DNA of 64,000 nucleotides from NCBI GenBank assembly GCA_035578905.1, contig JAQJVL010000004.1, positions 6,989,175-7,053,174 on the forward strand. The letters are read 5' to 3'. This document shows positions 54,124 to 55,206 of the stretch, piece after piece. The DNA comes from Stictocephala bisonia (lineage: Eukaryota > Arthropoda > Insecta > Hemiptera > Membracidae). The notes below the pieces were generated by a model. That model did not search any database, was not told where the DNA came from, and saw only the letters and a program-made list of their open reading frames with translations. The position numbers and the translations under genes were made by a program. Position 1 is the first letter of the stretch. Every line of letters starts with the position of its first letter.

Positions 54124-55206
54124 TCATCCTAATATAATTACTGCCTGGATTTCCTTTACTACTAAACATGTCATTGGAATTATCTGATTATTCATTTCAA
54201 AATCTATCTGTGCTTGATAATTTATTTTCTTTGATCTCACACCAGTGACTCCTATAATCTGTAAATTACTTACTGGTAGTTGTGGTATTTTATAATCTAC
54301 ATTATTCTTTATATCCTCATATATGTCTTGACTTATAATGGTAGCCTCCGAACCTGAATCTACTATGCATCTATACTCTTTACTTCCTATTTGTAGATTT
54401 ATTTCTGGTAAAAAGTGAGTTAAACCCTTGATTGGCATTTCATGAAAGTTGTCTTCATTAGTTAGTTCATTATTTAAGTCTTCATGTAAAAATATTTCAT
54501 TAGTATTAACCTTAACTTTATTTCCTTTGTCTGACTGCATTGGTTTAATAAAATCATTTATTATTTGCTGAATTATAGAAAATCCTTTCTTATTGATATG
54601 AATGAAGTCAGGTTTTTTAATGCCTCTTGAGAAAATTTCTTTTTCAAACAAATCTATATTACATCTGTTTTTATATTCTGGGTCCATAAATGCATTGGAT
54701 ATATTTACCACTCTAATGTTATTGTCATTGTTTAGAGAGTTTATGAAGTCATTAAATATGTTTAGTTTATGGAAGTGAAAAGAGTCATATCTTGCTAGTT
54801 TTGGAATTGGCGGTAACGTTAATAAGATTAAATTTTTATTCCAATTAGATAATTCTTCAATCATGGTTTTGTATTCATTTATTACATATTTTACTGGTAC
54901 TCCCTGTAAGAAATCATTTGTTCCTATCATGATAATAAGTTTGTCATTAAGATTGTCTTTATCTAGTTTAAGTTCATTTCTTAATTCAGGAATATTTTGT
55001 CCACTAACACAAAGTCTTATTCTTCTTTTGTTTGACACAAACACTGGTGTTTTGTGTAATATATGTTGTGCAAATCTGCTTAACTGGCTGTCTCCTACTA
55101 ATTCATGATTCAAAAATATTGCTTTTTCTCTTATCTGTCCTACATTACATGAATAGTGATTAATTGCCCTATGTGTGTTAATAGTGTTTGTGTCCTGCTG
55201 TAATTG
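54124..55206 (-). CDS. SGNH-hydrolase-like domain fused to retropepsin, read through from Gag
   Basis: 360 codons open from the codon after the TGA (55,207-55,209). Counting from there: block I GDSQLSR at residues 38-44 (nucleophile Ser40), SGQN with the block II glycine at about 69, GTND at 95-98 (block III Asn97), and DFIH at 200-203 (block V Asp200 and His203). All four SGNH blocks are thus kept in the right order and spacing. A retropepsin core follows: CIVDSGSEATII with DSG at 283-285, and ends AVIILG at the frame's stop. The first ATG in the frame is at residue 93, after the nucleophile, so the domain cannot be started independently. SGNH enzymes are esterases/lipases; the substrate here is unknown. 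The protease end is frameshifted. Confidence 0.85.
   Translation of the reverse strand, partial: QLQQDTNTINTHRAINHYSCNVGQIREKAIFLNHELVGDSQLSRFAQHILHKTPVFVSNKRRIRLCVSGQNIPELRNELKLDKDNLNDKLIIMIGTNDFLQGVPVKYVINEYKTMIEELSNWNKNLILLTLPPIPKLARYDSFHFHKLNIFNDFINSLNNDNNIRVVNISNAFMDPEYKNRCNIDLFEKEIFSRGIKKPDFIHINKKGFSIIQQIINDFIKPMQSDKGNKVKVNTNEIFLHEDLNNELTNEDNFHEMPIKGLTHFLPEINLQIGSKEYRCIVDSGSEATIISQDIYEDIKNNVDYKIPQLPVSNLQIIGVTGVRSKKINYQAQIDFEMNNQIIPMTCLVVKEIQAVIILG

What the first reader, a model, noticed from the sequence alone, without database searches (positions are those of the whole stretch)
54124..55206. An SGNH-hydrolase-like domain fused to a retropepsin inside an LTR retrotransposon
The frame keeps all four SGNH blocks in order (GDSQLSR, the SGQN glycine, GTND, DFIH) and then runs into a protease DSG motif. 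Esterase/SGNH domains are known in ORF1 proteins of CR1/L2-type LINEs, where they are non-LTR; finding one between Gag and protease of an LTR element is unusual to my knowledge. The preserved catalytic residues in a copy that is otherwise damaged suggest the domain was under selection in the parent family. It may act on membranes during particle assembly or trafficking, but that is inference.
Basis: partly seen in the sequence, partly recalled or inferred. Interest (0 to 1): 0.88.

Follow-up and report, generated by a model that had tools for sequence, protein, structure and literature searches.

The report
Retrotransposon carrying an Oskar-like esterase domain
A damaged jumping gene (LTR retrotransposon), of a family also seen in a leafhopper, carries an enzyme-like domain fused to its protease; the closest relatives found are the OSK domain of the insect germ-cell gene oskar and similar insect genes, and its catalytic residues are still in place.

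The parts
57050..58021 (-). 5' LTR (972 bp, TGTAAC...GTTAAA)
   Evidence: 941 identical, 27 mismatched, 4 gap columns against the 3' LTR; termini read
50295..51266 (-). 3' LTR (972 bp, TGTAAC...GTTACA)
58022..58025 (-). target-site duplication copy ACGT (5' side)
   Evidence: flank read; the satellite unit shows the empty site ATCC-ATGT-CATC
50291..50294 (-). target-site duplication copy ATGT (3' side)
58066..59109 (.). 98-bp tandem satellite that received the insertion (related units at 49886-50294 on the other side)
57026..57049 (-). primer-binding-site-like stretch (GTTTGGCGCACCAACCACGTGAGG) right after the 5' LTR; tRNA not assigned
   Evidence: sequence; inference
55207..56862 (-). gag-like region: coiled-coil-like N-terminal part, capsid-like middle, RG-rich C-terminal part without an evident zinc knuckle; interrupted by at least one stop and frame changes
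   Evidence: ORFs; frames; no Pfam gag match at E<=1 for three ORFs of 149-161 aa nor at E<=0.1 for the 76-aa start, so Gag is inferred from position and composition
55201..55209 (-). stop UGA of the last gag ORF followed by CAAUUA (CARYYA-type readthrough context); the SGNH-PR frame follows in the same frame
   Evidence: motif described in PMC3542737 (one passage)
54541..55116 (-). SGNH hydrolase domain of OSK type (residues 31-222); Ser40, Gly69, Asn97, Asp200, His203
54421..54540 (-). linker (residues 223-262), present also in Homalodisca P0002 and contig protein P0035
54127..54420 (-). retropepsin (residues 263-360, VDSGS), cut short by a frame change
53739..54128 (-). ORF in another frame that looks like the rest of the protease plus a short tail, ending without RT
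   Evidence: reading as protease tail is inference; no RT trace in 51266-54130

Best explanation
This is a decayed, non-autonomous copy of an LTR retrotransposon family (Ty3/gypsy type, judged from a relative) whose polyprotein order is Gag - SGNH(OSK) - PR - Pol. Its SGNH domain was most likely captured from an OSK-type gene of a hemipteran (leafhopper/froghopper lineage) host and then kept in the family. Shown: order of SGNH and PR, fold, OSK kinship, retained catalytic residues, related copies elsewhere. Inferred: Gag is made alone most of the time and, by readthrough of a UGA in a CARYYA context, sometimes as Gag-SGNH-PR(-Pol), so the domain rides into the particle at Pol stoichiometry; the protease then frees it; it acts as an active acyl-ester hydrolase at membranes in germ cells, aiding particle assembly, trafficking or release, as was argued for the LINE ORF1 esterase, rather than as the catalytically dead RNA-binding OSK of Drosophila.
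For: Pfam OSK 3.6e-17 and Oskar as best PDB sequence; OSK as best fold by 4.6 Z units. Family: P0035 40% over 271 aa of SGNH, linker and PR, then a stretch that aligns (20% over 241 columns, E 1e-9 for the PR-to-RT alignment) with the part of gypsy-type Pol P0043 that precedes its RT domain; P0002 39% over 227 aa; P0042 98% identical to P0002 over 121 aa, on another contig, so multicopy. Catalytic residues: Ser in 1 of 1 element rows that reach it, Gly in 2 of 2, Asn, Asp and His in 3 of 3 (P0002, near-identical to P0042, not counted). Between element rows, columns conserved in 26 host rows stay the same far more often (18/24, 23/32, 18/24) than variable ones (29/109, 33/129, 32/109), Fisher p 2e-6 to 5e-5. 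Tree: element rows one clade 97/94, sister to 11 auchenorrhynchan-type OSK rows, joint 96/91; 95/93 and 97/92 with insects and elements only. UGA-CARYYA: 11 of 9048 stop triplets of the window, this one included, have that context.
Against: Placement is not robust. Dropping short rows lowers the supports to 74/90 and 86/92. With six rows left out the joint clade is not recovered, though not rejected (p-AU 0.24); with another five left out neither the element clade nor the joint clade is recovered (p-AU 0.42, 0.41); the tree with the elements outside all insect OSK is not rejected (0.32, 0.48), and the outgroup rows do not hold together, so the root is unsure. The SGNH part is less alike between element copies (35-37% to the window) than the PR (48-57%), and the window's SGNH is closer to Macrosteles (42%) than to its element kin. 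P0035 itself has no Pfam RT match and has DCA in place of DSG. Gag has no family match. The UGA could be one more lesion in a damaged gag, and no RNA structure follows it (z 0.56). No enzyme activity of an OSK-type domain is reported in the passages I read. The host species of the window is unknown.
Confidence: 0.6

Rival explanations
1. Oskar-like role: the captured OSK domain binds RNA or germ-plasm partners and takes the element's RNP to the germ line or packages its RNA; the catalytic residues are ancestral and incidental. (Compatible with host capture; a rival on function only.)
For: Nearest known structure is Drosophila Oskar OSK, reported as RNA-binding (PMC8662646, passages); gag shows no evident zinc knuckle, leaving room for another RNA binder; net charge of the window domain +5.
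Against: Of the Drosophila RNA-binding arginines, R436 and R442 are Gln and Thr in the window and R576 has no counterpart; but R436 is rare in the other rows too (2 of 27) while R442 is Arg or Lys in 17 of 24, and PMC8662646 reports these arginines as conserved in Holometabola only, so this counts little. Full SGNH residues are kept; the charge of the two other element domains, both partial, is 0; RG repeats in gag could bind RNA by themselves.
Confidence: 0.2
2. Passenger: a host OSK fragment was transduced into the element, stays open only because it lies in the pol frame, and has no function of its own.
For: SGNH diverges faster than PR between copies; the window copy is non-autonomous.
Against: Catalytic and host-conserved columns are kept through divergence to about 37% identity; an in-frame insert of about 190 codons without function would be expected to be lost or to decay.
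Confidence: 0.12
3. Reverse direction: an SGNH-bearing retroelement lineage is older than the insect genes and supplied the OSK domain to insects, oskar included.
For: A tree with the element rows outside all insect OSK rows is not rejected (p-AU 0.32 and 0.48) and is the best tree in one weak variant (support 41/66); a crustacean (Hyalella) also has an OSK-type SGNH protein with the catalytic residues.
Against: Best trees group the elements with auchenorrhynchan OSK genes; the only named host of the element found is one leafhopper species; print favours bacterial transfer (PMC7250577, PMC13389597, passages).
Confidence: 0.07
4. Element-to-element exchange: the domain came from LINE ORF1 or Penelope-type SGNH ORFs.
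For: Fish ZfL2 ORF1 esterase (4c1b) is a profile match, 1.9e-9; swaps of GDSL ORFs between element classes are described in bdelloids (PMC5408684, passages).
Against: Oskar is far stronger in the same search (4.8e-22) and ZfL2 sits on a very long branch (4.12) away from the element clade.
Confidence: 0.04

Closest known systems
OSK domain of Oskar (Pfam PF17182; PDB 5a4a, 5cd9)
   Different: Drosophila OSK has Asp, Val, Pro and Phe in the columns of the catalytic Ser, Asn, Asp and His, and Oskar joins it to LOTUS, not to a retropepsin
OSK-only genes of Auchenorrhyncha and other insects (e.g. Macrosteles LOC128997898, Cuerna, Homalodisca paralogues)
   Same: Named auchenorrhynchan models are 38-42% identical to the window, other named insects lower (29-36%); catalytic residues in nearly all rows that reach them
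   Different: No PR match in the 16 scanned; Macrosteles has several isoforms, as a spliced host gene does
Bdelloid rotifer Vesta LTR retrotransposons with GDSL ORF3 (PMC5408684, abstract and passages)
   Same: SGNH/GDSL ORF with catalytic residues in an LTR retrotransposon
   Different: There an ORF3 where other elements have env; here in frame between Gag and PR, and of OSK type
Esterase of CR1/L2/RTEX LINE ORF1p (ZfL2-1, PDB 4c1b; PMC3905857, abstract and passages)
   Same: SGNH esterase in the gag-like position of a retroelement; reported to hydrolyse esters and bind liposomes
   Different: Non-LTR element; distant SGNH branch
Ty3/gypsy-type Pol P0043 (1110 aa, PR-RT-RH-IN, contig without organism)
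   Same: Protease 42% identical over 79 aligned residues
   Different: No SGNH match

Membership tests
LTR retrotransposon | Two direct LTRs with TG...CA ends | tested here: met
   972-bp repeats, 941 of 968 aligned bases identical, TGTAAC...GTTACA in one, GTTAAA at the end of the other
LTR retrotransposon | Target-site duplication | tested here: met
   ATGT/ACGT, 3 of 4 bases equal; the satellite unit shows the empty site with ATGT
LTR retrotransposon | Gag | tested here: inconclusive
   ORFs in place between PBS-like stretch and PR, no Pfam gag match
Ty3/gypsy (Metaviridae-like) | PR-RT-RH-IN order with gypsy-type RT | tested here: inconclusive
   This copy has PR only; relative P0035 runs on to the region before the RT domain of a gypsy-type Pol but has no Pfam RT match itself
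SGNH hydrolase superfamily | Four blocks with Ser, Gly, Asn, Asp-x-x-His and the SGNH fold | tested here: met
SGNH hydrolase superfamily | Ester hydrolysis | not testable with these tools
   needs an assay
OSK domain (PF17182) | Score above the Pfam cut-off and OSK as best fold | tested here: met
Oskar (LOTUS + OSK gene) | N-terminal LOTUS domain | tested here: not met
   No LOTUS match in the frame or in the gag ORFs scanned; so it is OSK-type, not Oskar
Oskar OSK function in Drosophila | RNA-binding arginines R436, R442, R576 | tested here: not met
   Gln, Thr, no counterpart; PMC8662646 reports them as conserved in Holometabola only
Retropepsin (RVP) | D[ST]G motif and retropepsin fold | tested here: met
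CR1/L2 LINE ORF1 esterase | Closest kin among SGNH proteins | tested here: not met
   OSK much closer

The most novel reading that the evidence does not exclude
Retroelements carrying a catalytically complete OSK-type SGNH domain belong to the lineage from which insects received the OSK domain, so that oskar's germ-line domain came by way of a retrotransposon instead of a direct bacterial transfer; a weaker form is repeated traffic of OSK domains between insect genomes and germ-line retroelements in both directions.
Probability: 0.08. Interest if true: 0.95.

Novelty: new variant of a known kind. Interest (0 to 1): 0.74.

Why it matters
Oskar's OSK domain is a well-known puzzle: half of a germ-cell determinant that looks like a bacterial lipase and is described as having lost its catalytic residues in insects. 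Here an OSK-type domain with its catalytic residues travels in a retrotransposon, an element that must enter the germ line to persist. It gives a testable system for what a catalytically competent OSK domain does, a second route by which such domains can move between genomes, and an LTR counterpart of the LINE ORF1 esterase placed in frame between Gag and protease.

Tried and rejected
Rejected: kinship with the LINE esterase as the closest source; RT or integrase remains between 51266 and 54130 (nothing better than E 0.27, tested with one gypsy Pol and the family proteins); a second copy of the element in the window (none); an RNA structure after the gag stop (z 0.56); structured RNAs and tRNAs that might identify the host (none); bacterial or viral-contig relatives of the OSK alignment (no confirmed locus; each used one peptide pattern and one scan of those allowed, so this is weak); BFVD fold search: the named rows among the 50 shown are phage or unspecified-virus proteins, none named as retroviral, and several rows have no name; NCBIfam: one match far under its cut-off.

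Led nowhere: the search of the window's own genome, so copy number, intact copies, host OSK paralogue and dN/dS remain open. The host of the window is unidentified; a (TAACC)5.8 stretch at 47076-47104 resembles the arthropod telomere repeat (recalled), which is weak.

Full report

Element. LTRs at 58021-57050 and 51266-50295 share 941 of 968 aligned bases plus 4 gap columns. The ends TGTAAC...GTTACA are inverted repeats, with one changed base in the 5' copy. The insertion interrupts a 98-bp satellite (58066-59109, related units at 49886-50294); the flanks carry ACGT and ATGT, and the satellite itself shows ATCC-ATGT-CATC, so the duplication is 4 bp with one later change. Gag-like ORFs lie between a PBS-like stretch and the SGNH frame; no frame is open through the region (21, 48 and 99 stops). 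They have no Pfam gag match; one has sub-cut-off matches to coiled-coil-like families (Phasin, Apolipoprotein). After the protease there is a short ORF in another frame and then about 2.5 kb in which no RT trace was found (one gypsy Pol and family proteins as queries). This copy is non-autonomous and damaged.

Junction with gag. The last gag ORF (55692-55207) and the SGNH-PR ORF (from 55206) are in the same frame, split by UGA followed by CAAUUA. That is the CARYYA context known to stimulate readthrough, usually of UAG but also of UGA (PMC3542737, one passage). In the window 11 of 9048 stop triplets, counted in all frames of both strands and this one included, have it. The test is post hoc, the copy is damaged, and no structure follows, so programmed readthrough is a proposal.

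Family. Three protein searches gave 17, 40 and 4 matches at E 1e-3, overlapping, 42 distinct proteins. Of these, two show SGNH joined to this PR: P0002 (Homalodisca vitripennis, 39% over 227 aa) and P0035 (443 aa, contig of 3520 bp without organism, 40% over 271 aa). P0042 (Homalodisca, partial, ends before the PR) is 98% identical to P0002 over 121 aa but on another contig, so the family is multicopy there. P0035 continues past the PR into a stretch that aligns with P0043, a gypsy-type Pol without SGNH, up to its residue 286, short of the Pfam RT domain that starts at 315; P0035 itself has no Pfam RT match. P0035 also has DCA where the window has DSG, so its protease may be impaired. By domain, the window is 37% (SGNH) and 48% (PR) identical to P0035, 35% and 57% to P0002, and 42% in SGNH to the Macrosteles OSK gene.

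OSK kinship. The remaining matches are, but for P0043, OSK-domain proteins: of leafhoppers, a froghopper, a scale insect, a louse, a termite and a cockroach, crickets, locusts, a stick insect, fireflies, a dragonfly, one amphipod crustacean (Hyalella), and of contigs without organism (common names of the taxa recalled). Sixteen of them were scanned with Pfam and none had a LOTUS match (nine at E up to 1; seven at E up to 0.1; the other two proteins in these calls are P0002 and P0035). Gene models may be incomplete, so absence of LOTUS is not proof.

Catalytic residues (34 rows, after leaving out 8 of the 43 proteins before the tree and 4 distant rows, bact_7ddy, ZfL2, P0037 and P0038, before this count). 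Window: Ser40, Gly69, Asn97, Asp200, His203. In the 31 rows other than the window, P0035 and P0042, gaps aside: Ser 26 of 27, Gly 30 of 30, Asn 27 of 29, Asp 22 of 24, His 21 of 23; Drosophila Oskar is among the exceptions at Ser, Asn, Asp and His. P0002 is one of the 31. Print says the insect OSK domain lacks these residues (PMC8662646 and PMC13389597, passages); in these mostly non-dipteran rows they are mostly present.

Constraint. Columns at least 85% conserved in 26 host rows (41 columns) are kept between element rows far more often than the 145 variable ones, Fisher p 2e-6 to 5e-5 for three pairs, which are not independent. This fits selection on the protein within the element lineage. 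It is not dN/dS.

Tree. With 38 rows the element rows form a clade (97/94) beside 11 auchenorrhynchan-type OSK rows, three of them from unnamed sources (joint 96/91; the same values with an L-INS-i alignment). The two intended outgroup rows do not hold together there. Insects and elements only: 95/93 and 97/92; without five short rows 74/90 and 86/92. With 32 rows (six left out) the joint clade is not recovered (p-AU 0.24, not rejected) and the insect genes stand together without the elements, support 41/66. With 33 rows (five left out) neither the element clade nor the joint clade is recovered and neither is rejected (p-AU 0.42, 0.41; elements outside 0.48); with all 38 rows the elements-outside tree has p-AU 0.32. 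So capture from a hemipteran-type host gene is the better-supported reading, and the direction is not settled.

Mechanism. Most likely, in my judgement, the domain is an active acyl-ester hydrolase carried into the particle as part of a readthrough Gag-SGNH-PR(-Pol) protein and freed by the protease, acting at membranes. [quoted passage not shown] The window lacks R436 and R442 of Drosophila (Gln, Thr) and has no counterpart of R576, but these are described as holometabolan features (PMC8662646) and R436 is rare in the other rows as well (2 of 27), so this is weak support. An Oskar-like RNA or germ-plasm role is the main rival.

Known or new. GDSL ORFs in LTR elements are known from bdelloid rotifers as ORF3 (PMC5408684, abstract and passages), and SGNH esterases from LINE and Penelope-like elements (PMC3905857). 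I found no paper on an OSK-type domain in a retroelement or an SGNH domain between Gag and PR, in searches of the open-licence PMC library (listings, with passages of five papers read: PMC5408684, PMC8662646, PMC7250577, PMC13389597, PMC3905857). Most subscription journals and Repbase are not covered, so this is a limited statement.

Noticed in passing
OSK-domain proteins, not in the window: Many hemimetabolous and some beetle OSK-domain proteins keep the SGNH catalytic set, and the 16 scanned show no LOTUS match; Hemiptera, described as nearly without oskar (PMC8662646), have several OSK-only genes (at least four Homalodisca models).
   Followed up: partly
P0036, Hyalella azteca: An amphipod crustacean protein of 186 aa is an OSK-type SGNH protein (Pfam OSK 1.4e-13) with all catalytic residues, outside insects.
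   Followed up: partly
P0024 (Parthenolecanium) and P0026 (Menopon): OSK domains split by a large insert before the Asp-His block, in a scale insect and a louse.
   Followed up: no
55201-55209: UGA-CAA-UUA readthrough context exactly at the gag/SGNH junction.
   Followed up: partly
59530-60364 (+): LINE-type reverse transcriptase remnants in two ORFs (RVT_1 E 0.019 in the first, no match in the second; LINE type is recalled).
   Followed up: no
28455-30762: Tandem repeat open in several frames on both strands (ORFs of 596 to 726 codons), a mechanical effect of the repeat.
   Followed up: no
60663-61235: Perfect inverted repeat, arms of 208 bp, enclosing a second inverted repeat around (TA)27.
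   Followed up: no
47076-47104: (TAACC)5.8, resembling the arthropod telomere repeat (resemblance recalled).
   Followed up: no
51266-53739: About 2.5 kb of AT-rich sequence without a coding signal found between protease tail and 3' LTR; whether it belongs to the family or replaced pol is unknown.
   Followed up: no
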